From positions 1-55,239 of the IMG/VR virus record IMGVR_UViG_3300045109_000002: a stretch of 55,239 nucleotides of DNA; one strand, written 5' to 3'. The notes under the pieces were generated by a model. The model had not been told where the DNA came from. It saw only the letters and a list, made by a program, of their open reading frames with translations, and searched no databases. This DNA is from a virus. The position numbers and the translations under genes were made by a program. Of the stretch, positions 19,430 through 55,239 are shown in pieces; the first letter of the stretch is position 1, and every line of letters begins with the position of its first letter.

Positions 19430-19872
19430 CGTTCGCGCTCATGAGGGCAGTAACCAAGAATTCCACGAGCACAATTGCAATTGAAACACAGACAACGGAA
19501 CTCATCTTGTGGATACCCGTGCCGCTCTAACCAGCGGTAGAGCGTCCACCCTGTAATATGCCTCTTATGGGTAGCATCTTTACGACCATTCACATGGTCG
19601 ATGGTGAGGAACCATTTGCCAGTCTCACCACAACATTTACACCTGTACCCATATGCCGCAAACACCCGGTCCCTCAGAGCTTCGTGCCAAGCCTTTTGCC
19701 TCCGCTGAACTTTTTTTGCATTTTTGGCATACCACTTACGTTGGTACACTTTTAGCTTTTCAGGGTGGGCTTTATGCCAAGCTGTATTGCGCGCAAGAAT
19801 CGTTTTGCGGTGTGCCACGTCAGTGTGGTACTTCACACGTTTGCGTTGTGCGTACTCTGCGGACTTGTCCAT
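19426..19872 (-). CDS. HNH homing endonuclease (free-standing)
   Basis: 148 residues. A basic N-terminal half rich in Lys/His/Trp is followed by CKCCGETGKWFLTIDHVNG, a helix with LYRWLERHGYPQDEF, then LCFNCNCARGILGYCPH. The two Cys pairs, DH and CN motifs match phage HNH enzymes and align with the gene at 12862..13398. It starts on the portal stop (TGATG) and its end overlaps the HTH gene by ATGA, so it is inserted with no extra bases between genes. Confidence 0.85.
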   Translation of the reverse strand: MDKSAEYAQRKRVKYHTDVAHRKTILARNTAWHKAHPEKLKVYQRKWYAKNAKKVQRRQKAWHEALRDRVFAAYGYRCKCCGETGKWFLTIDHVNGRKDATHKRHITGWTLYRWLERHGYPQDEFRCLCFNCNCARGILGYCPHERER

Positions 19873-21575
19873 CAGCGCGGCCTTTTCAGTTTCGTCAAAG
19901 CGGACAACTGCATTTGTTGCTCTTGGACCTCACTTATTTCTTGGTGACCAGGAATGTCTAGCATCTCCAGCGCATATTTCAATGGCAGATGGCCCTTGTC
20001 CAGCAGGGCCAGGACCAATCGCCGCATGCTCGAAGCGCTGATGGCTTGGGTTGATGCGGGGTCCAGGTAGATGTCGTAGTCATCGTAGATGGTGGCTATC
20101 GAGGACCAGGTGATGAGGTCACTGCCGCCTTTGTTGTCGAACTTCGGGAAGCGGTAATCGTCGTAGTAGCGGGCCATGGTGTAGAAGACCATCTCCGAGA
20201 GGTCTTGTACGGACTCGCTCAGGATGCGCATGCGCAGGCGGGTCATGCGCGAGGATTCGCTGGCGGTGTAGTCGGCCAGGTCGGCAGAGGTGTTGCCTTG
20301 TCCTTGCTGGCCGCCACGGGCGCCTTGCATGCCCAGGAGTTCTTTTTGCTTGGTGAGCAACATTTCGGGCAGCGCGGTCATGTGTTGCGGCATGGCGTTG
20401 GGCCACTTTACTTCTGGAAATTGACTGCCTCGGTTGATTACGCGGATTTCAGCAGGGATGCCCCCGAAGTCGTCAGCCGAGATGCCGGTGTCTTCGTGAA
20501 TGAACCAGATACCGTTGTTCAGGCGGACAGCGTTCTCGAAGGTTTGTGTGAGCATGCGCTCAGCCAGGAACTGCAAGCCGCGAGTATAGCGGATGCCCGG
20601 CGGCGCCCAAAAGCTGCCCAGAGAAGGCATGCCATGAAAAGGCACAATAGGAAAACGGCCCATGGGATAAGGGTTCTCACCGTCGGCAAGCAGTACCTCC
20701 TCGCAGTCGATCAGGTAGCGGCCGTTGGGCCACTTGGGTTTGTGCTTTGGAGGCGTTACGAGCGGGCCGAGTTGTTCGGCCATGCGTTCTCGTTCTTCTT
20801 TGGAGATTTCCTCGGTGGTGAAGTCGCGGATGAAGGTGTGACGGACGGTGACAAGAGGGTTCGGTTCGGGCTGGCGGTTGCCGCCATAGGCGGAGGCGTA
20901 GCGCATTGCGCCGGGGGTCATTCGGAAGCTGGGTGAGACCTCAGAGGTCCCTATCGAGAAGGTGGAACCTTTGCGGGGGCGGACGGACCAACCACGCTCG
21001 GGCCAGCGCTTGCGTACTTCGTCGATGTACATGATGTCGACGTATTGGACGTAGAGCCACTTTTTCGGGTCGCGGCTGGCAGGGTCGGGATAGACAGTGT
21101 CGGGGTCGCGCGATTCTATCCAGACTTCACCACGGCCTCGGCGGGCGTCCGGGTCGAAGCCTACTTGTGCGAAGCCGGTGCCTGCGAACAAGGCCCAGAT
21201 GTCTATTTCCATCAGGCGGTTGTTGAAGTGCATTTGCTTCCAATGTTCTTGGAAGGCGGTTTCGCGAGGTGCGTCACGCTTGCCGTCCTTGAGCAGGAAG
21301 ATGCGTGGTGAGGCGTCGCTGATGTCCGTGGCTTCGTTCAGCAAGGCGATTTGCAGGTCGGGGATTTGGATGCGCGGGCGGAAGTTGGGGCTGGTCCAGG
21401 CTTGCGTGGCAGAGTCCATGGCGAAGAAGCGGCGCAGGTCGCCGAAGAATCCTGTGCCGAGTTGTTTGTCACGCTCCTCTTGGGAGAGGCGCGTCAGTTC
21501 GTCGAGCTGGCGGATGATGACGAGGTCGGGGTTTTCTTCGGCGGTCTTGCGCCTGACGAAGGTGGTAACGGCCAT
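19872..21575 (-). CDS. Portal protein
   Basis: 567 residues. Diagnostic stretches are the wing-like segment WIESRDPDTVYPDPASRDPKKW, the region PYPMGRFPIVPFHGMPSLGSFW before the crown, and a long helix LLTKQKELLGMQGARGGQQGQG followed by YTASESSRMTRLRMRILSES. Gene order terminase, portal, scaffold, capsid and the length fit podovirus portals, which form the dodecameric DNA entry vertex. Start ATG 21575. Confidence 0.85.
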   Translation of the reverse strand: MAVTTFVRRKTAEENPDLVIIRQLDELTRLSQEERDKQLGTGFFGDLRRFFAMDSATQAWTSPNFRPRIQIPDLQIALLNEATDISDASPRIFLLKDGKRDAPRETAFQEHWKQMHFNNRLMEIDIWALFAGTGFAQVGFDPDARRGRGEVWIESRDPDTVYPDPASRDPKKWLYVQYVDIMYIDEVRKRWPERGWSVRPRKGSTFSIGTSEVSPSFRMTPGAMRYASAYGGNRQPEPNPLVTVRHTFIRDFTTEEISKEERERMAEQLGPLVTPPKHKPKWPNGRYLIDCEEVLLADGENPYPMGRFPIVPFHGMPSLGSFWAPPGIRYTRGLQFLAERMLTQTFENAVRLNNGIWFIHEDTGISADDFGGIPAEIRVINRGSQFPEVKWPNAMPQHMTALPEMLLTKQKELLGMQGARGGQQGQGNTSADLADYTASESSRMTRLRMRILSESVQDLSEMVFYTMARYYDDYRFPKFDNKGGSDLITWSSIATIYDDYDIYLDPASTQAISASSMRRLVLALLDKGHLPLKYALEMLDIPGHQEISEVQEQQMQLSALTKLKRPR

Positions 21576-22224: not shown

Positions 22225-22384
22225 GGCGGTCCTCCTTTGGTGGTGAGGGTGGTAAGGGTTGACAGTTGATGCAGCGCCATTGTTTTTGTGGTTCGTCGTG
22301 GGTAACGAGGTACATGTCGCTGTGGCAGTGGATGCATTGGGGTGCCGAGGATGGTGCGGGGGATGCGGGCCAAGCTAAGGTCAT
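22211..22384 (-). CDS. Small zinc-ribbon protein
   Basis: 57 residues from ATG 22384, overlapping the terminase stop as ATGA. CIHCHSDMYLVTHDEPQKQW followed by RCINC gives two Cys-x2-Cys knuckles about 20 residues apart, a zinc-ribbon layout. Pro-rich C-terminus (PLPPSPPKEDRH). Probably a small nucleic-acid or protein-binding factor; no family name is certain. Confidence 0.65.
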   Translation of the reverse strand: MTLAWPASPAPSSAPQCIHCHSDMYLVTHDEPQKQWRCINCQPLPPSPPKEDRHSSP

Positions 22385-24126
22385 ATACCTTCCAGTCCTG
22401 ACGGGCGGCCGGAGCGGGAACGCATGGCTCGCATCGTCAATTGATAGTGGCGGCGCAGGCTCAGTTCGACAGGTTCTTGCGGGCGAATGCCCATGGCGCC
22501 GAGCGGGGAGTAGGCGGCACTGTCGTCGATGTCGGGTTTGCGGGAACGGTTGGTGACGCGTGGCGGGGGCCATTGGGACATGGCGATGACACCCAGCATA
22601 GCGGCGAATAGGATGTCGTCGTTGCCGCGTTCGACTTCCCACATGAAGCCTTCATAAAAAGTGGCATTGTCCATCTGTTGCACGAGGGCATCGTCGTAGA
22701 TCGCTAGACCTCCTTCTTCGTTGCGCATGCCTGAGCGGACCCCGGCCCTGAAGGTGTCGAATAGTTTGCGGCGTGAGGCGGATGTGGTTTCCCAGCCGAT
22801 CAAGGGGAGGCCGGTGCGCGCGCCAGGCTTGCGGTCGTCTTTACCTTTCCAGATATAGAAGTTATTGTAACGGTAATCATCGCGCAGCACTTTCAAGGCG
22901 TGACGGCCCAGGTTGCCGGTCAGTTCGATGTTTACCATCGCTTTGTTGTAGTACTGGCCGATGAGGTTGAGTTGGTCGGCTAGGTGCTCAGGGTGGATGC
23001 GGTCGGCGTAGCGGGCTACTTGTTCGCCAGTGGTGCCGTCGAAGACTACGTAAGCGGCAAAGTCGCCGTCTTCGATACCGGTGGCGGCGTCGGCTCCTAC
23101 GTAGTAGTAGTGGCGCAGCTCAGGGGGGCGCCATATGTGGAGCAGGCCGTTCCTGACTTCCTCGAAGGTGACACGGTTTAGAGCGGGGTCCCAGCGGACT
23201 CGCCCACGCTTGAGGGGCTTCTCGCAGGTCGAGCGAACGTAGATGATTTCTTCGCGGGGGAAGGCCGGGTCGCCTGAAGCGACGAAGGCTACTTCGGGAG
23301 TGTGTGGATATTCCTGCATCATTTTCGGCAGCAGACCTTGGCACTTGTCCTCTAGTGTGCGGCGGAACCAGGCAATTTGTGGTTTGGTGGCGTGGAAGTC
23401 GCGCATGAGTTCCCGTTCGATGTCGCTTGCAGGAGCGTCGGCGGCTTCGTCGGCGGGTCGGATACAGGCGGGGTCGTCGAGCCAGGGGAGAAAGATGGGG
23501 ACGTAGCCGTTCTTGCCAGCGACTGCGCTATTCCAGAAGTCATAAAACGCTTTACCAGGGCCGACACGGCCGTTTGCAGTTGATTCAATCGCGACAAAGG
23601 TGTCGTCGCCGTCTGACACAGCAGGCAGCAGCGACAAGAAGGAGTCTTCCCCAGGGAAGAAAGCGGCTTCGGACAGGTGCACAAATGATAGCGTAAGGCC
23701 ACGTCCGCCGATGACAGAACCTGCTGTTGAAATGTCAAGGATAGAATCGCCGTCGGGGTGCGGGACGATGATGCGCCGGGTGCGGACATCTACGACTGTA
23801 TTACCATAAGGGAGGCCGGAAACCAAGTCGCGCGGGACGCGGAAGAGGCCCTCGGCGGTGGACTGGAGGTGGGCGACGATTTTGGCGTGGGCCTGAGGGC
23901 GGGCGAGGCAGTGGAGAAGGCCGAGAGAGTCCATCAGTGAGGACATGCCCACGCGTCGAGCTTTGAGGATGATGGTGCGGCACATGCCGATGTCATCGTA
24001 TTGTTCTTCCAGCATGCGCATGGATTTTTGCTGGTTGGCGTTCAGTTTGAACCTGATTGTTCTACCCGTGTCACGGTCTTTGATGGGCAGCTTGGCGAGT
24101 AGTGTTATAGCATTCGTGAGGTTCAC
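22381..24126 (-). CDS. Terminase large subunit (DNA-packaging ATPase/nuclease)
   Basis: 581 residues. ATPase domain: a Walker A variant KARRVGMSS at residues 55-63 and a Walker B region LTLSFVHLSEAAFF near 145-158. Nuclease domain: VGADAATGIEDGDFAAYVVFD carries the first catalytic Asp, VNIELTGNLGRHALK the second acid and NDDILFAAMLGVIAMS the third, as in RNase H-like terminase nucleases. It drives DNA into the procapsid through the portal and cuts the concatemer. Start and stop overlap neighbours by 4 bases. Confidence 0.92.
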   Translation of the reverse strand: MNLTNAITLLAKLPIKDRDTGRTIRFKLNANQQKSMRMLEEQYDDIGMCRTIILKARRVGMSSLMDSLGLLHCLARPQAHAKIVAHLQSTAEGLFRVPRDLVSGLPYGNTVVDVRTRRIIVPHPDGDSILDISTAGSVIGGRGLTLSFVHLSEAAFFPGEDSFLSLLPAVSDGDDTFVAIESTANGRVGPGKAFYDFWNSAVAGKNGYVPIFLPWLDDPACIRPADEAADAPASDIERELMRDFHATKPQIAWFRRTLEDKCQGLLPKMMQEYPHTPEVAFVASGDPAFPREEIIYVRSTCEKPLKRGRVRWDPALNRVTFEEVRNGLLHIWRPPELRHYYYVGADAATGIEDGDFAAYVVFDGTTGEQVARYADRIHPEHLADQLNLIGQYYNKAMVNIELTGNLGRHALKVLRDDYRYNNFYIWKGKDDRKPGARTGLPLIGWETTSASRRKLFDTFRAGVRSGMRNEEGGLAIYDDALVQQMDNATFYEGFMWEVERGNDDILFAAMLGVIAMSQWPPPRVTNRSRKPDIDDSAAYSPLGAMGIRPQEPVELSLRRHYQLTMRAMRSRSGRPSGLEGI

Positions 24127-26056: not shown

Positions 26057-26362
26057 CGCCACCAACTAAGTAACACCACCTCAACAACTTACGCTTAGCT
26101 AGATATTCCCAGAGAATTTTTACGTAGACCAGGATAGAAAATTCGCCGCAAGCTCGCGTGTGCGTGCGTGGGTCGCGTGTGAGGTGATGGGGTGCCCTGG
26201 TGGGGTGAACGTTTGCGAGAGGGTGTGGTCAGGTGGGCACACTGTGTGGCACATAGTGTGCGTGTACGCGCGGGCGCGCGAGCGGGTAATGAGAGTACTG
26301 AGCGTACTAGCGAAATTGTACTAGTACTCACAAACTTTGGAAAAGGGTTGCACATTTGTGGC

Positions 26363-26410: not shown

Positions 26411-26472
26411 ACTTGCGCGTTTTGAACGACTTGCGTTTTGGCATGCGCTTTGCAAGAGGCATTTGCGTTCGT
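26411..26472. repeat. Cluster of TTGCG-type short repeats
   Basis: Four imperfect copies follow each other: ACTTGCGCGTTTTGA, ACTTGCGTTTTGG, ATGCGCTTTGCA and ATTTGCGTTCG, spaced 13-19 bases. Such closely spaced repeats in a non-coding region can be iterons or operator sites. No protein partner is known. Confidence 0.4.
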
Positions 26473-26542: not shown

Positions 26543-26725
26543 ATGGTTTGCGTTATCGACAAAGCGAAGGGTACACTCACAGTGACGATTCCGTTGCAGG
26601 AAGCAAAAGCATCGGCATCTGGAAAGACTCTGGTCATCGCCAGCACTCATGGCAATCAGGCGACGGGCATCAACATGGACGGGCGGCCTGTGATTCTTGG
26701 GCTGAACGCCTATCTGCGTGTCTGA
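26543..26725 (+). CDS. Hypothetical 60-residue protein
   Basis: MVCVIDKAKGTLTVTIPLQE followed by STHGNQATGINMDGRPVILG: alternating hydrophobic pattern of a small beta-rich protein. A strong SD (AAAGGAG) precedes ATG 26543. It stands alone between two non-coding stretches, so it may be expressed from its own promoter. No family is recognised. Confidence 0.6.
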   Translation: MVCVIDKAKGTLTVTIPLQEAKASASGKTLVIASTHGNQATGINMDGRPVILGLNAYLRV

Positions 26726-26784
26726 AATACCACAGGGTGTGTCCATTCTGCCACAGGGGCAGCCTGCACGGTTGCCCCCTTGAT

Positions 26785-26824
26785 GTTACCTTTTCACCCA
26801 TTCTGTAACCTTTTGAACCATTCG
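26785..26824. repeat. Tandem 20-base repeat (two copies)
   Basis: GTTACCTTTTCACCCATTCT is followed directly by GTAACCTTTTGAACCATTCG, 16 of 20 bases identical. Two turns of DNA per unit put both copies on one helix face. It lies just before the presumed structured RNA and could be an operator or promoter-associated element. Confidence 0.5.
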
Positions 26825-26869
26825 CAAAGCGTGCGAGAGCGTGCACGGGAGGGCATGGGCGGTTGACGT

Positions 26870-28080
26870 GCTTCTCCGCGTGCGCTCCCCTGAGCGGGAC
26901 GCTGGCATGGTTGGGTTGGCTCGATAAGCGGCCCTAGATTGCCAGTGACGTGTAGGGTTAGGTTGGAGCGTCGTGAGGTAACAGAGACTCGTCACTGCCG
27001 GGGTGAGTGCTAGACTTGGCTCACCAGGTGAACGGCCCTAGACAAGCCGTGAGAGTGGCAGACAAGATGGTAGCGGCAACTGTTGTGAGGGTCATGGACG
27101 CGCTTGAATAGCAAGCGCACGACACCATACAAGCCCCTGAGCAGGACTGGACAGGCGGCACCACACAACAAGACCCCCGCGCTAACGGAAACTCGATGGC
27201 TGTGAACAGCCGATGGTATGGTGCTTCGGGGACGCAAAACGTCCCCGTTTGGGAGCATAGCTCCCATGTGTTCAGGTGTGCCCTCTCGGGCGCATTGGCG
27301 AACAAAAGCCCCTACGATGGAGAGTCAATCAGGAAGTGGACCTGTGTCCGTCATCTGTGCGGCCTACTCCCTGTGATGCAGCAGGGCAGGCGACAGACCG
27401 TACACAGCACTCCACATTAGCGTGCGTGTCTGTAGTTGCCAACAAACGAGAGACGCATTGCGGTTCCTGTAGGCCGATAACCCTAGGTGAGCGTTGCTAG
27501 CGGGCGCGCTGTTGAAGGCGCCTGTGAGGCCGTGACCGATGTGTGTCGTGGGTTTGACCTGTAGTTCATGCAACACACGCAGTAACGGGACGCACTCCAT
27601 GGCGGGGTACGCAACACCATACAAGTCTGAGAATGGACATGACCTCATAACTGTCAAGGTTGTGCGAGGACCTGGTGAGTGTGTGCTCTTGTGGCAACCT
27701 GAGCGTACCGATACCGGCGAGCGCAATACAATGGTGTAGAGGCATGGTGTATATCAGGCGATTTTTGTGGATTGTGTTGTGTGATGAGAGTGCGAGCCGG
27801 GAGCATACAGACACGTATGACTTCTCAACCTGTGTCGTTGGACGCGAGACAGGCGCGACAAGCGTTACGGCTCTCATCCGCAGCATTGATGGCATGTGCC
27901 CCTGTGAGGGTAGGTGTTATGAATGGTGCGCGATTTTGGCTAGATTTTTCAGCAATTTGCGTTTCGGTAGCGGGCTAGGATGTGCTTTGCTGGCAAGGGG
28001 ATGCGTTTTGTGAGGCTTTTGCAGGCTTTTTGGTGCTGAGAGTAGCAAAGCAGAGTTTTGCACAGCGCAAATGGGCTAAA
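26870..28080 (+). ncRNA. Large structured non-coding RNA (novel or GOLLD/ROOL-type)
   Basis: About 1.2 kb without protein-like sequence, in a genome otherwise packed with genes, contains at least eleven short perfect stems. Examples: GCGCTTG/CAAGCGC (27100-27118, loop AATAG), GGCTG/CAGCC (27198-27211, loop TGAA), CGGGGACG/CGTCCCCG (27227-27247, loop CAAAA), TGGGAGC/GCTCCCA (27250-27266, loop ATA) and TGTGCCC/GGGCGCA (27277-27294, loop TCTC). Longer pairings are CAGTGACG/CGTCACTG (26943-26997) and CACCATAC/GTATGGTG (27123-27223). Giant ornate RNAs such as GOLLD and ROOL occur in phages; membership cannot be tested here. Strand is inferred from flanking genes and the ends are uncertain. Confidence 0.6.
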
Positions 28081-28133
28081 CTCATGAGAGTACTGGTACT
28101 GTGTTGAATCTGAACGAAAGGAGGACATCGGTC

Positions 28134-28262
28134 ATGATGTTTAGGACTAGCATACGCAAGTTGGTGCGCCAGTCTGTGGCTCAGGCGCTGGCAGCAGCGA
28201 AGGCGTCGGTGCATCCGAAGATTAGGCGCATCGAAGGGTTTGCACTCGTCAGGACCTTCTGA
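28134..28262 (+). CDS. Small basic helical protein
   Basis: 42 residues: MMFRTSIRKLVRQSVAQALA, then AAAKASVHPKIRRIEGFALV. An amphipathic helix with many Arg/Lys residues. AGGAGG lies nine bases before ATG 28134. It marks the end of the non-coding stretch. Function unknown. Confidence 0.5.
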   Translation: MMFRTSIRKLVRQSVAQALAAAKASVHPKIRRIEGFALVRTF

Positions 28263-34263: not shown

Positions 34264-34463
34264 TGGGTCCAGGCAAGTACGACGACTTGTGTACTTACGT
34301 CCGTACTAGTACTTCATCCAAAGGGTGCATCGTCATCGCCATCCAAGGCAGCCAAGGCTCGGGCATGTCCTGTCAGGCCACACCAGAAATCACCAACATC
34401 CTACCGGCCATCCTGCGCCGCGTAGCCGACAACATCGAAGAGAAAGGAGCAGCAAACGCATGA
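34260..34463 (+). CDS. Hypothetical small protein
   Basis: 67 residues from ATG 34260 (GAGGAG upstream). GCIVIAIQGSQGSGMSCQAT is followed by NILPAILRRVADNIEEKG, a strand-loop-helix pattern. It overlaps neighbours by ATGA at both ends. No family is recognised. Confidence 0.55.
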   Translation: MMGPGKYDDLCTYVRTSTSSKGCIVIAIQGSQGSGMSCQATPEITNILPAILRRVADNIEEKGAANA

Positions 34464-43508: not shown

Positions 43509-43823
43509 GTGACCATCCCCGACAAAGAGAAAGAACGCATCCATGAACTCCTCGGCGAATACCACCGCCTCGCCCATGCCATGCAGTCCGGCGTGAAGTG
43601 GGAACAGGAGCACGGGGTGGACGACGGCTCGCCTAAGCACATGCGTGTAGGAATCAACAACGCCATGCGCGACCATGGTTCGCTGGCGGCCCTGTTGATT
43701 CGTAAGGGCATCATCAGCGACCTTGAATACGCCGAAGCCATCGTTGTGGGCATGCGCGAGGAGGTGGCCATGTACGAAAGACGTATCAGCGAGAAGACCG
43801 GCCGGGAGGTGCATTTGGTATGA
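43509..43823 (+). CDS. Hypothetical helical protein
   Basis: 104 residues from GTG 43509 (TAAGGAGAG upstream). Wholly helical: IPDKEKERIHELLGEYHRLA, then SLAALLIRKGIISDLEYAEA. No family is recognised. Overlaps the next gene by ATGA. Confidence 0.6.
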   Translation: MTIPDKEKERIHELLGEYHRLAHAMQSGVKWEQEHGVDDGSPKHMRVGINNAMRDHGSLAALLIRKGIISDLEYAEAIVVGMREEVAMYERRISEKTGREVHLV

Positions 43824-44113
43824 CCATCACCCACGAACATGCTCTCCCCGAGAGCCACTGCCCCTGGTGCGGTTACACGATCGACGCCGTAACCTGCCTC
43901 GACGAACGAGGCAACGAGCACGACAAAATGCCCCAGCCGGGGAACTTGACCGTGTGTGTGAAATGCGCGCACATTTGTGCCTTCGCGGACGACCTGACCT
44001 TGCGTACCCCCACCGACACAGAGCTGGAGAGTATGCCCACCGCCCTCATGCGCCTGCTCTCCAAGGTGCAGGCGGCGGTGCGCTTGGCGAGAGCCAAGGA
44101 GGCACCTCAATGA
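43820..44113 (+). CDS. Zinc-ribbon protein
   Basis: 97 residues. HCPWCGYTIDAVTCLDERGN and LTVCVKCAHICAFADDLTLR give a treble of Cys pairs as in zinc ribbons, followed by a C-terminal helix (TALMRLLSKVQAAVRLARAK). It is coupled on both sides by ATGA overlaps, directly ahead of the sigma factor gene. Possible partner of transcription. Confidence 0.6.
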   Translation: MTITHEHALPESHCPWCGYTIDAVTCLDERGNEHDKMPQPGNLTVCVKCAHICAFADDLTLRTPTDTELESMPTALMRLLSKVQAAVRLARAKEAPQ

Positions 44114-44682
44114 GCGAGTGCCGCTGCCTGTTGGTCGCACCTGAACGCCTGCCCGACGAGATGCTGTGGTCCATGGTGACCAATGGCAGGAAGGATGTAT
44201 GTGAAGGGGCCTTCGACGAAATCCTCAAACGCTACCTCAAATTGGTGCGCCATATCGTGTGGCGCATCCTGCGCAACGTGGTCAACAACCACAGCGACCT
44301 GGACGACGCTGTCCAGAACGTGTTCCTTGAGGTCTTCAGGGCGCGACACAAGTTCGATGCTTCGCGTGGCTCCTTCAAGGTCTGGCTAGTCGGGTATGCC
44401 TACACGCGGACCTTTAACTACCTGAGAGCGCTGGTACGCACCGAGATTCACAGCGCCCACCCCGTGGATGGCGCCTACGAGAGCCACCTCGACAAGCGCA
44501 TCTGGGCCAGGGAATTGTTCGCCATGCTCAACACTCGCCAGAAACAAGCGGTGAAGCTGGTCGCCCTGGCGGGCTTCACCCTGGAAGAAGCCGCGCGGGC
44601 CATGGGCCACACCCTAGCTGCCACCAGGCACTATTGCTACAAAGGACTCGCTAAGTTGCGGGCTACGGAGGCTGTCAAGTGA
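44110..44682 (+). CDS. ECF-like sigma70 family factor
   Basis: 190 residues from ATG 44110. Region 2: FDEILKRYLKLVRHIVWRIL, then HSDLDDAVQNVFLEVFRARH and GSFKVWLVGYAYTRTFNYLR, the helix pattern of sigma region 2.1-2.4 with the DL-DDAVQ-V-F-E motif. Region 4: LNTRQKQAVKLVALAGFTLE, then EAARAMGHTLAATRHYCYKG, a helix-turn-helix. Length is typical of ECF factors. It probably redirects host RNA polymerase to phage promoters. Which promoters is unknown. Confidence 0.8.
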   Translation: MSECRCLLVAPERLPDEMLWSMVTNGRKDVCEGAFDEILKRYLKLVRHIVWRILRNVVNNHSDLDDAVQNVFLEVFRARHKFDASRGSFKVWLVGYAYTRTFNYLRALVRTEIHSAHPVDGAYESHLDKRIWARELFAMLNTRQKQAVKLVALAGFTLEEAARAMGHTLAATRHYCYKGLAKLRATEAVK

Positions 44683-48026: not shown

Positions 48027-48281
48027 ATGCACAAAGTAATGCGAAACTACTGGATTGGCGTGGCGCTGATGGTTGGCAACACGCTGCTGTTGGCTCTCAA
48101 CGTTTATAGGCACAACTGGTGGGCAGTAGCGGTGAATGGCGCCACCGCCATCGGCGTAGCGCTAGGCATGAAATGGCTGATCGAGACGGCCCATTTTGTC
48201 GGCTACGGTGATGGGCTCGACTGGGCCAAAGACACGTTGCGAGAGACTATGAATGCAGCCACAAGGTCCACATTGCGGTAG
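48027..48281 (+). CDS. Small membrane protein, two spans
   Basis: 84 residues: NYWIGVALMVGNTLLLALNV and WWAVAVNGATAIGVALGMKW are two hydrophobic helices separated by a short loop with HN. A charged C-terminal helix follows. The last 10 codons overlap the polymerase start in another frame. A holin-like or membrane anchor role is possible. GGAGGCC upstream of ATG. Confidence 0.6.
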   Translation: MHKVMRNYWIGVALMVGNTLLLALNVYRHNWWAVAVNGATAIGVALGMKWLIETAHFVGYGDGLDWAKDTLRETMNAATRSTLR

Positions 48282-51200
48282 TTGCCCTTACAGCTCAGGC
48301 GAACGCTTCATCCCTGCCGATGGCAGTGGCAGCAGTGGCATCCTGCTGGTTGGCGACAGCCCATGGGTTGACGAAATAGCCGCTGGGCGCCCTTTCGCTG
48401 GCGCCGCTGGCCGCACCCTCGACCGCATCCTCTCGCTCATGCCTGGCGGTGGGATGGCTCGTGGCGACCTCACTGTTGCCAACACCATCTGGTGCAAGCC
48501 TCCATACCTGCGCTGGATGGACAAGCCCCATCGTGACGCTGTTGCGGCCATCGAACACTGCCGCCCCAACCTGGACGAGCTTATCTACGCACGCAAGCCC
48601 AAGGTCATCGTCCCCATGGGCAACGTGGCACTGAGGAGGGTTTGTGGCGTATCGGGCATTGAAGAACGCGCTGGCTACGTCCTACCAACGCCTTATGGCA
48701 TCCCTGCGGTGCCTACGTATCATCCGGCTTATATTCAGCGTGGTAAGCAAAACCTCGTACCAGTTGTCCTTTGGGCGCTCCAGCGGGCGGGGCAGATTGC
48801 CGATGGTTCATTCACTCCATCTGTATATTCGCTGCTGGTGGACGCTCCTCCCGAAAGTGTGCGCGATTACCTGGCGTCATCGGGAAGCCATATACCAAGC
48901 CTCTTCGTTGACATTGAAACTCCCGAATCCGCTGCCCTAGACGAGGAGGACCTGGAGGAGGATGGCCCATCGTATACCATCGTCCGTGCAGGTTTCTCGG
49001 TGCGTGCTGGGACGGCCTGTTCATTCCCGTGGGAGCAGCCTTACATAGACATCATGCGTGAGGCCCTCTCGCGCGCTGAGGAGGTCGTAGAATGGGCGGA
49101 CCATCACTTCGATACCCGAAGACTTGCTGCGGCGGGCCTCGCGATGCCTGCCAGGATTGTATCGGCCATGTGGGCGTGGCACTGGTTGCAAAGCGATTTG
49201 CGGAAAGGGTTAGGTCTGGTGGCGCCATTTTTCTATGCCGGGCCGCCTTGGAAGCACTTGAGCGCAGCCGAGCCGGGGCGCTACAACGCCTTAGACAACG
49301 CGATTGGATTCGACTGCTACTCAGGTACACGGGCAGCGTTACAATCCCAGGGAAGGTGGGACGCCTTTAACAGGCACTGCGTAGACTTCGCTCCTGTCCT
49401 CCAAGCGATGGGCCGCAAAGGCTTGCGTATCGACCGTGCTTACCAGACGGCCTTCATGGCTCAACTTGAGACTGAGTGGGACGTATCGAACACCAAGTTG
49501 CAGACCTTCGTCCCTGACGCCATCAAACCACGCAAACAGTGGAAACGCCCCCCGAAGGACTTGACCGGCGTCACCGAACTGCCTGTGCCTTCACCAGAGC
49601 AACAAATGATTCTCACCGGCGCCGCAGATAAACTAGGTGAGCTACTGGCCGACCTGTCTGCACCTGGTGCTGGTCGCTCGTCGTCCTACCCGGACGACTC
49701 GCTCCATATAACTGAGAGTGCTCACAAGCGCCTGACCGTCACACCTTACCGTTACGAACGCATCGAGCCTTTCAATCCCGACAGTTGGCCGCAAGTGACG
49801 GCCCTCGCGAAGCACTTAGGTATCAAACTGCCACCGCGTGAATCGGCCAAGGAGAGCGACGAAGAAGCCCTCGCAACGGACAAGAAAACTCTAGGCAAGT
49901 ACGCCAAAAAGTACCCCGCCATCGCCTGCATCCTGAAGTGCCGCGAACGCTGGAAGCTCATTTCGACTTATAAGTGGAAGCTCGACGCAGACGACCGCGT
50001 CCACTATGTGCTGGGGTACCACCCGTCGACATGGCGTTTATGTATCGCTGAAGGCACTCCCGTGGAGATTGCCAGAAACCTACGGACTAACCCTGACGCA
50101 CCACCTATTGAAAAGGTGAAGCCTGGTGATTGGGCTTACACCTATGATAACGCTGGTAGGCTTACCGTTCGTAAGGTTGCATGGGTCAAAAAGACCGGCA
50201 TCCGTAAAGTGGTCCGTGTCCATTGGGAGGCAGGGTACGGGCCGACAATGCGGCAGGGTTATACTGACATGACGCCGGACCACCTTGTGCGGCTTGCCGA
50301 CGGTTCATGGAAAGAGGCTCAACGATTAACCCCCTATAATAAAGGGACGTGGAAGCACCGAGGTTATCCTAAAGGCGGCAAAGGTGATTCTTTGACGGCC
50401 ATGAAGCGTGGTGTCACGACTGCTCTAGGATATTCCATACTGCACACCACAGGGCGTCGTGAAGCCGTTAGAGACAACCGCGTCGTCTACGAAGGAGCTA
50501 CCGGTAAATACGCGGAGCACGTCCACCATATAGACGGTGACAAACTGAACAATCTACCAGACAACCTGCAAGGGTTGGACCGTGACGAACATGGGCACTT
50601 AACAGGGTCGGAGAGGTGGGCAAGGGAGGTAACAACAGCCAAGCGCGTAGGCCCAATGCAGGCACAAGCCCGTAAAGAGCTGCGAGAGCATCTGGAGCGT
50701 ACAAAGTATCCGAAGCCAGTACCATACTGCCGGTACGTACCGAACAACCATCGCGTCATGAGAGTCGAGAAGTTGGATACCCCTGTTCCGGTGTACGATT
50801 TGGAGGTAGAAGAGACTCATAACTTCATTGCTGGAGAAATATGCGTACACAACAGTTGCCGAAACGCAAACCTGCAAACCATCCCCAAGCGCAGCGACCT
50901 AGCGCGCCTCTTCAGGCGCATGATCGTCGCGACACCGGGCCACAAACTGATCGAGGGAGACTCGGCGGCGATAGAGGCAGTCTTGGTTGGCTACTTCGCC
51001 GGGTCGGCACGATACAGGCGGCTGGCCAAGTGTGGCGTACATGGGTGGCTTACAGCGAAACTGCACGGATTGGAAATCCCCCTGACCCTGGAGGACTCCG
51101 AGTTGCAGAGGCAATCGAAGCTCTCGAAGAAACAGTGGCCCGAGGATTACGAGAAGATGAAACGCGTGGTGCACCTGTCAAATTACCTCGGCACAAAAAG

Positions 51201-51741
51201 GCGCATCCATGAGGAATATCCTGACGACTTCCCGACTGAGCGCGAAGCCGCTAAGCTACAGCAATTCTACCTTGGCAGCGACCCCGGCCAAGACGTGCGC
51301 GCCTGGCAAAAAGCCACCGTCGAACTGGCCCATGCCTCGAAAGCGCTCGAAAACAACTTCGGCCTGCGCCACCGTTTTTATAGCCTGTATGCCTGGAACG
51401 CCCGCCGCTCGACGTGGGAATTCGGCGACGACGCCAAGCGGGCTGTTGCGTTCCGCCCACAGTCTGCTGCTGCGGCCATCCAGCGCATCATCGTGCAACG
51501 CCTGCTGGAACGCATGCCTCAAGCGCTCCAATGGCTCTGCCTGCTGGTCCACGACTCCATCATCGCCGACGTGCCGGACGCTCATGTCGATGAGTACTGT
51601 ACAGCCCTCTACGAAGCGATGACCTCGCCCATCGACGAACTCGAAGGGCTGACCATTGGCGCTGAGATGCTGATGGGCGACAACGCCGCGCCAGCCGACC
51701 AGGACAACGAAAAGGGCATGCGCGAGTGGCTGCCACGTTAG
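48253..51741 (+). CDS. Uracil-DNA glycosylase / family A DNA polymerase fusion with intein
   Basis: 1162 residues as read; about 891 after intein removal. Residues 1-165 are a UDG family 4/5-like domain: Cys 8, 11, 81 and 103 for a 4Fe-4S cluster, GDSPWVDEIAAGRPFAGAAG and the YHPAY motif (His 157). A DEDDy-type 3'-5' exonuclease follows (FVDIETPE at 218; WADHHFDTRRL; YNALDNA). The polymerase part has RL-SCRNANLQTIP (split by the intein), motif A LIEGDSAAIEAVLVGYF and motif C LLVHDSIIADV, where the usual HDE reads HDS. It replicates the genome, and the UDG-like module may read or remove uracil. Confidence 0.85.
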   Translation: MQPQGPHCGSCPYSSGERFIPADGSGSSGILLVGDSPWVDEIAAGRPFAGAAGRTLDRILSLMPGGGMARGDLTVANTIWCKPPYLRWMDKPHRDAVAAIEHCRPNLDELIYARKPKVIVPMGNVALRRVCGVSGIEERAGYVLPTPYGIPAVPTYHPAYIQRGKQNLVPVVLWALQRAGQIADGSFTPSVYSLLVDAPPESVRDYLASSGSHIPSLFVDIETPESAALDEEDLEEDGPSYTIVRAGFSVRAGTACSFPWEQPYIDIMREALSRAEEVVEWADHHFDTRRLAAAGLAMPARIVSAMWAWHWLQSDLRKGLGLVAPFFYAGPPWKHLSAAEPGRYNALDNAIGFDCYSGTRAALQSQGRWDAFNRHCVDFAPVLQAMGRKGLRIDRAYQTAFMAQLETEWDVSNTKLQTFVPDAIKPRKQWKRPPKDLTGVTELPVPSPEQQMILTGAADKLGELLADLSAPGAGRSSSYPDDSLHITESAHKRLTVTPYRYERIEPFNPDSWPQVTALAKHLGIKLPPRESAKESDEEALATDKKTLGKYAKKYPAIACILKCRERWKLISTYKWKLDADDRVHYVLGYHPSTWRLCIAEGTPVEIARNLRTNPDAPPIEKVKPGDWAYTYDNAGRLTVRKVAWVKKTGIRKVVRVHWEAGYGPTMRQGYTDMTPDHLVRLADGSWKEAQRLTPYNKGTWKHRGYPKGGKGDSLTAMKRGVTTALGYSILHTTGRREAVRDNRVVYEGATGKYAEHVHHIDGDKLNNLPDNLQGLDRDEHGHLTGSERWAREVTTAKRVGPMQAQARKELREHLERTKYPKPVPYCRYVPNNHRVMRVEKLDTPVPVYDLEVEETHNFIAGEICVHNSCRNANLQTIPKRSDLARLFRRMIVATPGHKLIEGDSAAIEAVLVGYFAGSARYRRLAKCGVHGWLTAKLHGLEIPLTLEDSELQRQSKLSKKQWPEDYEKMKRVVHLSNYLGTKRRIHEEYPDDFPTEREAAKLQQFYLGSDPGQDVRAWQKATVELAHASKALENNFGLRHRFYSLYAWNARRSTWEFGDDAKRAVAFRPQSAAAAIQRIIVQRLLERMPQALQWLCLLVHDSIIADVPDAHVDEYCTALYEAMTSPIDELEGLTIGAEMLMGDNAAPADQDNEKGMREWLPR
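50041..50853 (+). mobile_element. Intein with HNH endonuclease domain in the DNA polymerase
   Basis: 271 residues (597-867 of the precursor). It starts with Cys (CIAEGTPVEI, block A) and contains TDMTPDHLVRLADGSWKEAQ (block B with TxxH-like TPDH). An HNH module follows (HVHHIDGDKLNNLPDNLQGL, then DEHGHLTG), and it ends VPVYDLEVEETHNFIAGEIC with VHN, followed by Ser of the extein. The insertion splits the polymerase motif RL|SCRNANLQ, a highly conserved active-site region. C1, H-N and +1 Ser are all present, so splicing should work. Confidence 0.9.
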
Positions 51742-52916: not shown

Positions 52917-52990
52917 GGCCTTGTAGCTCAACCGGATAGAGCAGCGGAGTTCTAACCCGCCGGTAGCGAGTTCGACTCTCGCCAGGGCCA
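52917..52990 (+). tRNA. tRNA-Arg (anticodon TCT)
   Basis: Acceptor stem GGCCTTG/CAGGGCC (one G-U), D-stem GCTC/GAGC, anticodon loop GTTCTAA with TCT at positions 34-36, T-arm GCGAG-TTCGACT-CTCGC and discriminator A. CCA is not encoded. The anticodon stem (GCGGA/CCCGC) closes on an A-C mismatch where A-T is expected. It reads AGA codons. Confidence 0.93.
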
Positions 52991-54150: not shown

Positions 54151-55059
54151 TCATTGCGTCGGCTGGACCCAGCCCCAATTCAGCCCGCCAGTTTCGAGCA
54201 TGAAACGGACAGTGCTCTGACCGGCGGGGAGCGCCACGCTGGCCGTGGTCCTTTGCTGCTGATAGACGCCCCATCCTCCAGTGCCGCTCGCAACGAGCGA
54301 AGCGCCGATCTTCGTTCCGAAAGGGAATTCGTAGTGATACAGGGCATTCGCGCCGGAAGCGTTCGCAAAGCAAGTCGTAAGGAAATAATTCCCAGCCGTA
54401 GGGACGCTGACGCTGATATCTACGGTCAGGCCGGGCACGGTCCAGCCCAAAGGGCCGCGCGGGTCAGAAGGCACGCAGGACGCTAAAGTGAAGTGCGGAC
54501 CATTGGGGCCGATGAGTGGATTCGACGTGATGATAGAACTGGTGCCGAATGTTACCGGGCCGTTCGTTCCCGTTCCTGCTGGGCCTGCTGGCCCTTGAGG
54601 ACCTATACTCCCTTGCGGTCCCTGCGGGCCGACGTTGCCCTGAGGTCCTTGCGCCCCTTGAGCGCCAGTGCCGCCTTGCGCTCCCGTAGCTCCTGGTGGA
54701 CCTTGAGGGCCTGGCGCTCCATCTTTGCCTGTTGGCCCCTGCGGACCCGCTGGCCCTGTAGCGCCTGTAACGCCAATCGGTCCTTGTAGACCAGTATCGC
54801 CCTGTGGACCTTGAGGACCTGCGGGAATCTTACCGATGGCCGTCGCTACACTTCCGGTCGGTGAATACAAGTCAGCGTCATGCTTCATTAGCAAGTCCGT
54901 ATAGACCTTCACGTTGGCGTTGACGTTGGTCATCAACTGCGCTGAGTTGCCAAGATCGGTGAGGTTGAAGATTGGCGGCAAAACTGGCGGCACATATGGC
55001 GTCTGAGCGGCAAGCCCGGCAGGGACGAAAAGTACAGCGATGGCAAGCAGTTTCTTCAC
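54151..55059 (-). CDS. Collagen-like fibre protein with signal peptide
   Basis: 302 residues from GTG 55059, which overlaps the upstream stop (GTGA) and has GAGGAG five bases upstream. [19 protein letters not shown] is a signal peptide-like start. A Gly-X-Y collagen region spans about residues 85-170 ([19 protein letters not shown]). The last 120 residues form a beta-rich globular domain ([20 protein letters not shown]). Collagen-like repeats are common in phage fibres, but a signal peptide on one is unusual. Confidence 0.75.
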
Positions 55060-55239
55060 TTTCGCTCCTCGCACAGAAACTCAACTTTTGCCCCTATCGG
55101 CGTAAGTATCTGCACATAGTTCTTGTCCACGCTCTCGATTACCGCATGGTCACCGTAGACGAAGCAGCGCGGCGCCCTGGCGTAAGGCGCTGCAAAATAA
55201 TATTGCACTCCTACGATCTGTCCGCTCGAAGCGAAGACG
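55056..55239 (-). CDS. Partial gene, C-terminal end only
   Basis: About 60 codons up to TGA at 55056-55058; the start lies beyond the window. Sequence [20 protein letters not shown], then [20 protein letters not shown] and VEFLCEER, beta-rich. No family is recognised. A direct join with the gene broken at position 1 puts the frames out by one base, so they are probably different genes. Confidence 0.5.

What the first reader, a model, noticed from the sequence alone, without database searches (positions are those of the whole stretch)
26870..28080. A 1.2-kb hairpin-dense, gene-free stretch: candidate giant structured RNA
Seen directly: no protein-like frame over about 1.4 kb in a tightly packed genome, and at least eleven perfect or near-perfect stems, four in a row between 27198 and 27294 with loops TGAA, CAAAA, ATA and TCTC, set inside longer pairings (CACCATAC/GTATGGTG; CAGTGACG/CGTCACTG). 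Known: ornate large RNAs such as GOLLD and ROOL occur in phages and are roughly 0.6-0.9 kb. Inference: this is one of these or a new class. It is the best candidate for an undescribed system here.
Basis: partly seen in the sequence, partly recalled or inferred. Interest (0 to 1): 0.88.

Follow-up and report, generated by a model that had tools for sequence, protein, structure and literature searches.

The report
New 0.9-kb structured phage RNA
An uncultured phage and two distinct relatives carry, between ordinary genes, a roughly 900-base stretch that makes no protein but whose base pairs have been kept by matching mutations on both sides, so it encodes a large folded RNA that matches no RNA family in the public library.

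Summary
In detail: window 26726-28133 has no conserved protein frame, and a conserved structured element fills about 26882-27790. It survives in two other distinct phages (L003, L004; terminase DNA about 80% identical), with many compensatory changes. RNAalifold on the three-sequence alignment gives z = -10.3 on the + strand, -2.9 on the reverse strand, about 0 for the terminase gene. A 25-helix model is 97.5% paired, with 45 pairs changed on both sides (shuffled 15.5). In leave-one-out tests, pairs changed on both sides in the held-out phage stay paired in 20/20, 11/11 and 15/21 cases. Folding energy alone is weak (z = -2.0). GOLLD, ROOL and every other Rfam model fail to match. No homologue appeared in the other collections searched. 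A related phage has the same neighbouring genes without the RNA, so it looks like an accessory cassette. Best reading: a new family of large structured phage RNA, GOLLD/ROOL-like in kind but not a member of either. Expression and function are untested.

The parts
26882..27790 (+). Conserved structured RNA (core, about 0.9 kb); ends approximate
   Evidence: Alignment z -10.3; 25-helix model; GU 79 vs AC 1 cells
26882..26971 (+). 5' domain: closing helix 26882-26888/26965-26971, inner helix 26900-26907/26940-26947; L004 has about 50 extra nt in its apical part
   Evidence: 3 of 7 and 3 of 8 pairs change on both sides, 100% paired
26991..27059 (+). Three-way element: 26991-26996/27054-27059, hairpin 27003-27008/27019-27024, hairpin 27032-27036/27046-27050 with near-invariant loop CCUARRCAA
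   Evidence: one pair seen as A-U, C-G and U-A
27070..27182 (+). Middle domain: helix 27073-27076/27177-27180 (invariant) and 27081-27096/27156-27170 (covarying), containing hairpin GCGCUUG/CAAGCGC at 27100-27118
   Evidence: 7 of 14 pairs change on both sides; the hairpin is kept with different sequence in L003 and L004
27186..27211 (+).
27216..27622 (+). Long-range helix 27216-27223/27615-27622 closing a domain with nested helices 27308-27312/27604-27608, 27317-27322/27595-27600 and 27330-27333/27466-27469
   Evidence: GUAUGGUG/CACCAUAC, GCAUUGUA/UGCAGUGC, GUGUUGAG/UUCAGCAC
27225..27266 (+). Window-only insert with two hairpins (loops CAAAA and ATA)
   Evidence: Absent in L003 and L004
27267..27302 (+). 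Conserved hairpin 27275-27283/27288-27296 with outer stem 27267-27272/27297-27302
   Evidence: helix 16, 93% paired
27334..27434 (+). Variable linker: about 100 nt here, about 120 in L004, about 20 in L003
   Evidence: Alignment A3
27435..27442 (+). Invariant GUUGCCAA, complementary to invariant UGGCAAC at 27692-27698; possible pseudoknot or kissing contact
   Evidence: not significant alone (about 2 such matches of 7 bp or more per shuffled alignment)
27625..27759 (+). 3' domain: long irregular hairpin, helices 27625-27631/27753-27759, 27638-27641/27743-27746 and inward, apical loop with invariant GUGGCAACC
   Evidence: helices 21-25 each 94-100% paired
26543..26725 (+). Conserved 60-aa protein gene upstream, found in many phages
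   Evidence: 68 loci; no Pfam match
26756..26778 (+). Terminator-like hairpin between the 60-aa gene and the RNA (weak T tail here, stronger in L004 by eye)
26420..26441 (+). Promoter-like repeat upstream of the 60-aa gene; copies at 27946-27967 and, partial, 26811-26825
   Evidence: resemblance only

Best explanation
The region encodes a standalone noncoding RNA of about 0.9 kb, read rightwards, that folds into a multi-domain structure held by long-range helices. SHOWN: conserved base pairing on the + strand; no conserved protein; three related phages carry it; a more distant phage with the same flanking genes (L093) lacks it; no Rfam match. INFERRED: it is transcribed as its own unit during early infection, because a terminator-like hairpin lies before it and promoter-like repeats lie on either side; it acts in trans as a folded RNA body in the manner of GOLLD and ROOL, with fixed outer domains and a length-variable linker, possibly self-associating or binding a host or phage component. 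What it binds is unknown.
For: Alignment z -10.3 on + versus -2.9 on - and -0.8 to +1.0 for the terminase. Leave-one-out: pairs with both sides newly changed stay canonical in 20/20 (window), 11/11 (L004) and 15/21 (L003), against null means of 9.0, 5.5 and 9.6. 45 pairs with changes on both sides versus 15.5 shuffled; slid controls pair 31-44% versus 97.5%. 79 G-U versus 1 A-C cells, so the structure is RNA of the + strand. Internal ORFs broken in homologues. Empty site in L093. Variable linker. Precedents: abundant ORF-less RNA of about 800 nt in phage ICP1 (PMC7567579), lncRNAs in phage K (PMC9241854), GOLLD/ROOL cages with a disordered variable linker (PMC12286853).
Against: Only three independent sequences, one cut at its 3' end (L003); no transcript data; ends not mapped; no tRNA island beside it, unlike many GOLLD/ROOL loci (single tRNA-Arg at 52917). 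Single-sequence folding is barely better than shuffled. A cis role for the same structure (leader or 3' UTR) is not excluded.
Confidence: 0.6

Rival explanations
1. Cis-regulatory RNA: a long untranslated region between the 60-aa gene and the downstream early genes that controls their transcription or translation (antitermination, attenuation or stability).
For: Same strand as both neighbours and no mapped ends; the terminator-like hairpin upstream has a weak tail in this phage.
Against: 0.9 kb with long-range closed domains is far larger than usual leaders; the relative L093 runs the same neighbouring genes without it; promoter-like repeat near 27946 suggests a separate downstream unit.
Confidence: 0.2
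2. RNA decoy or regulator for one specific partner (host RNA-binding protein, ribosome, defence or toxin system), not a self-assembling scaffold. This overlaps with the best explanation, which leaves the partner open.
For: Accessory position typical of host-interaction cassettes; invariant exposed loops such as GUGGCAACC and near-invariant CCUARRCAA; GOLLD is reported to bind ribosomes in pull-downs (PMC12286853).
Against: No partner known; size and multi-domain build exceed a simple decoy.
Confidence: 0.3
3. DNA-level element such as a replication origin or packaging/attachment site whose hairpins act as DNA.
For: Lies near the junction of the divergent gene arms.
Against: Structure is strand-specific: 79 G-U cells versus 1 A-C, z -10.3 versus -2.9; relatives lack it.
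Confidence: 0.04
4. Self-splicing intron or other known ribozyme.
For: Size would fit a group I or II intron.
Against: No intron or ribozyme model matches at E up to 10; it interrupts no gene.
Confidence: 0.03
5. Degraded genes or non-functional spacer.
For: Single-sequence folding energy is unremarkable.
Against: Compensatory changes across three phages, including held-out tests.
Confidence: 0.02

Closest known systems
GOLLD RNA (RF02032)
   Same: Phage/prophage-encoded, more than 800 nt, multi-domain, variable linker
   Different: No sequence or structure match; no adjacent tRNA array
ROOL RNA (RF03087)
   Same: Large phage RNA with a disordered variable linker
   Different: No match at E up to 10; no tRNA island
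ICP1 RNA of about 800 nt (ORF-less gap between ORF139 and ORF140, NC_015157 80097-81107)
   Same: ORF-less gap of about 1 kb in a phage genome; abundant transcript reported in PMC7567579
   Different: No match of models R1-R3 there
Staphylococcus phage K lnc001/lnc002
   Same: Long noncoding RNAs of unknown function in a phage (PMC9241854)
   Different: Beside tRNAs; no match to R1-R3
OLE RNA
   Same: Large ornate RNA (about 600 nt)
   Different: Found in Gram-positive extremophilic/anaerobic bacteria (PMC9723947 abstract) and acts with OLE-associated proteins; no Rfam match here

Membership tests
GOLLD | Match to RF02032 covariance model | tested here: not met
   No match at E up to 10 in three phages; none in cmscan. 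The control genomes gave only hits below the cut-off, so the search has no true positive control
GOLLD | Often near tRNA islands | tested here: not met
   Only tRNA is at 52917, about 25 kb away
GOLLD | 14-mer RNA nanocage | not testable with these tools
   Needs cryo-EM
ROOL | Match to RF03087 covariance model | tested here: not met
   No match at E up to 10 (whose control genomes also gave none) and none in cmscan
ROOL | Often near tRNA islands | tested here: not met
ROOL | Homo-oligomeric RNA nanocage | not testable with these tools
   Needs cryo-EM or native gel
Large ornate phage RNA (works like) | About 0.6-1 kb noncoding, extensive conserved structure | tested here: met
Large ornate phage RNA (works like) | Abundantly transcribed during infection | not testable with these tools
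   No RNA-seq available
Group I / group II intron | Match to the intron core models | tested here: not met
   No intron model in cmscan of the region up to E = 10

The most novel reading that the evidence does not exclude
A previously undescribed family of phage RNA that, like GOLLD and ROOL but from an unrelated sequence and fold, assembles into an RNA-only multimer (cage or ring), with its variable linker as cargo-facing part.
Probability: 0.25. Interest if true: 0.9.

Novelty: new variant of a known kind. Interest (0 to 1): 0.72.

Why it matters
Few large structured phage RNAs are known and none has a settled function. Another, unrelated family from an uncultured phage lineage suggests that phages have repeatedly evolved giant RNAs. 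With three alignable members, clear domain borders and an empty-site relative, it gives a defined construct for testing whether RNA-only assembly is a general phage strategy.

Tried and rejected
GOLLD, ROOL and all Rfam families; a first attempt used RF01998, which turned out to be group-II-D1D4-1, not GOLLD. Pattern scans for more homologues: viral contigs gave only the three phages, a near-identical contig L002 and chance coding hits; genome contigs gave 33 hits, about the number I estimated by chance, none confirmed by nhmmer; phage and plasmid collections gave nothing for the region, and the L004 piece gave only a 33-base match in a Delftia phage, taken as chance. Terminase relatives and carriers of the 60-aa gene searched with R1-R3: no homologue (the weak G015 and L152 hits, 12 and 14.5 bits, taken as chance). 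L037 was first suspected as a fourth member from two short motifs; alignment rejected it. Structure-aware MAFFT modes were not installed. My first impression that the RNA is better conserved than coding DNA was wrong: over its whole length it is 63-66% identical, the terminase 78-82%. The GUUGCCA/UGGCAAC contact is kept as a conjecture only.

Full report
WHAT WAS CHECKED. The window is a whole IMG/VR virus record of 55,239 bases. It is a tailed phage with a leftward structural arm (portal 19872-21575, terminase 22381-24126) and a rightward early arm. No GenBank phage is close: the portal has no match, and the listed terminase and DNA polymerase matches are all about 32% identical or less. The finding lies in the early arm, between a 60-aa gene (26543-26725) and a small gene at 28134. 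No frame inside looks coding, and the small ORFs on either strand carry stops or change frame in the two homologues, whereas the 60-aa gene is conserved.

HOMOLOGUES. A terminase search brought in L002, a near-identical contig that adds no information, and L003 and L004, distinct phages with terminase DNA 78-82% identical to this one. Both carry the region in the same place, right after the 60-aa gene. L003 ends at the 3' edge of the element. Motif scans of viral and genome collections, and covariance models R1-R3 run on 28 terminase-relative records (R3 on 15 of them) and 68 loci carrying the 60-aa gene, found no further member. In L093 the same 60-aa gene is followed by a strong terminator-like hairpin and, further on, by what looks by eye like a counterpart of the window's 28399 gene, with no RNA between. 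The element is therefore best read as an accessory cassette of one phage lineage, as far as these collections show.

STRUCTURE TEST. Folding energy alone is not convincing: z = -2.0 for 26882-27790 and -1.1 for L004; in 200-nt windows only the 27101-27400 part stands out within the RNA. Comparison is convincing. RNAalifold on the three-sequence alignment gives -201 kcal/mol against -130 (sd 6.9) for column-shuffled alignments refolded the same way, z = -10.3; the reverse strand gives -2.9 and the terminase gene -0.8 to +1.0. A 145-pair model drawn from that fold is paired in 97.5% of cells, with 45 pairs changed on both sides (15.5 in shuffles); sliding the partners by 1 to 3 columns drops pairing to 31-44%. 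That model was derived from the same alignment, so I also ran a leave-one-out test: structure predicted from two phages, judged on the third. Pairs where the third phage differs from both others on both sides are canonical in 20 of 20 (window), 11 of 11 (L004) and 15 of 21 (L003), against null means of 9.0, 5.5 and 9.6. The L003 result is the weakest; its null reached 17. G-U pairs (79 cells) against A-C (1 cell) indicate that the + strand RNA is the selected form.

ANATOMY. A 5' domain (26882-26971), a three-way element (26991-27059), a middle domain (27070-27182), two small hairpins, a large domain closed by 27216-27223/27615-27622, and a 3' hairpin domain (27625-27759) make up the RNA. The large domain holds a linker of about 100 nt here, 120 in L004 and 20 in L003. 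The long-range closing helix is GUAUGGUG/CACCAUAC here, GCAUUGUA/UGCAGUGC in L003 and GUGUUGAG/UUCAGCAC in L004. Two invariant segments, GUUGCCAA (27435-27442) and GUGGCAACC (27691-27699), are complementary and could make a tertiary or intermolecular contact, but matches of that length are expected about twice by chance.

WHAT IT IS. No Rfam family matches, including GOLLD and ROOL tested directly, though those two direct searches lacked a true positive control. Models of this RNA also find nothing in the stretches of phages ICP1 and K that hold their large RNAs. It shares with GOLLD and ROOL its size, phage origin, multi-domain build and variable linker (PMC12286853), so 'works like' is reasonable while membership is not met.

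HOW IT MAY WORK. Shown: conserved RNA fold, accessory location. Inferred: independent transcription (terminator-like hairpin upstream; promoter-like repeats; the phage has its own sigma factor at 43723-44682) and trans action as a folded body. Self-assembly is the most interesting possibility and is untested.

LIMITS.

Noticed in passing
L037:5205-5263 (-): A Twister-P5 self-cleaving ribozyme (55 bits) lies directly after a stop codon in the early arm of a related phage, followed by a roughly 440-nt noncoding gap.
   Followed up: partly
L108:1604-1659 (+): A second Twister-P5 ribozyme (48.7 bits) in another phage that carries the 60-aa gene, about 1.3 kb upstream of it.
   Followed up: no
48253-51741: One ORF joins an N-terminal uracil-DNA-glycosylase domain to a family A DNA polymerase, with an HNH endonuclease and intein-splicing match between them: probably a UDG-polymerase fusion carrying an intein.
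   Followed up: partly
26294-26330 and 34303: Cluster of AGTACT / palindrome GTACTAGTAC upstream of the 60-aa gene, repeated at 34303 and similar by eye in L003: operator-like.
   Followed up: no
26543-26725: 60-aa protein with conserved SGKTLVxAxTHGNQ core, found in 68 viral loci and without a Pfam match.
   Followed up: partly
L159:5098-6108 (NC_015157 80097-81107): The ORF-less gap of phage ICP1, reported as its most abundant transcript (PMC7567579), matches no Rfam family at gathering threshold: another unclassified large phage RNA.
   Followed up: partly
54151-55074: Collagen-like repeat protein on the minus strand.
   Followed up: no
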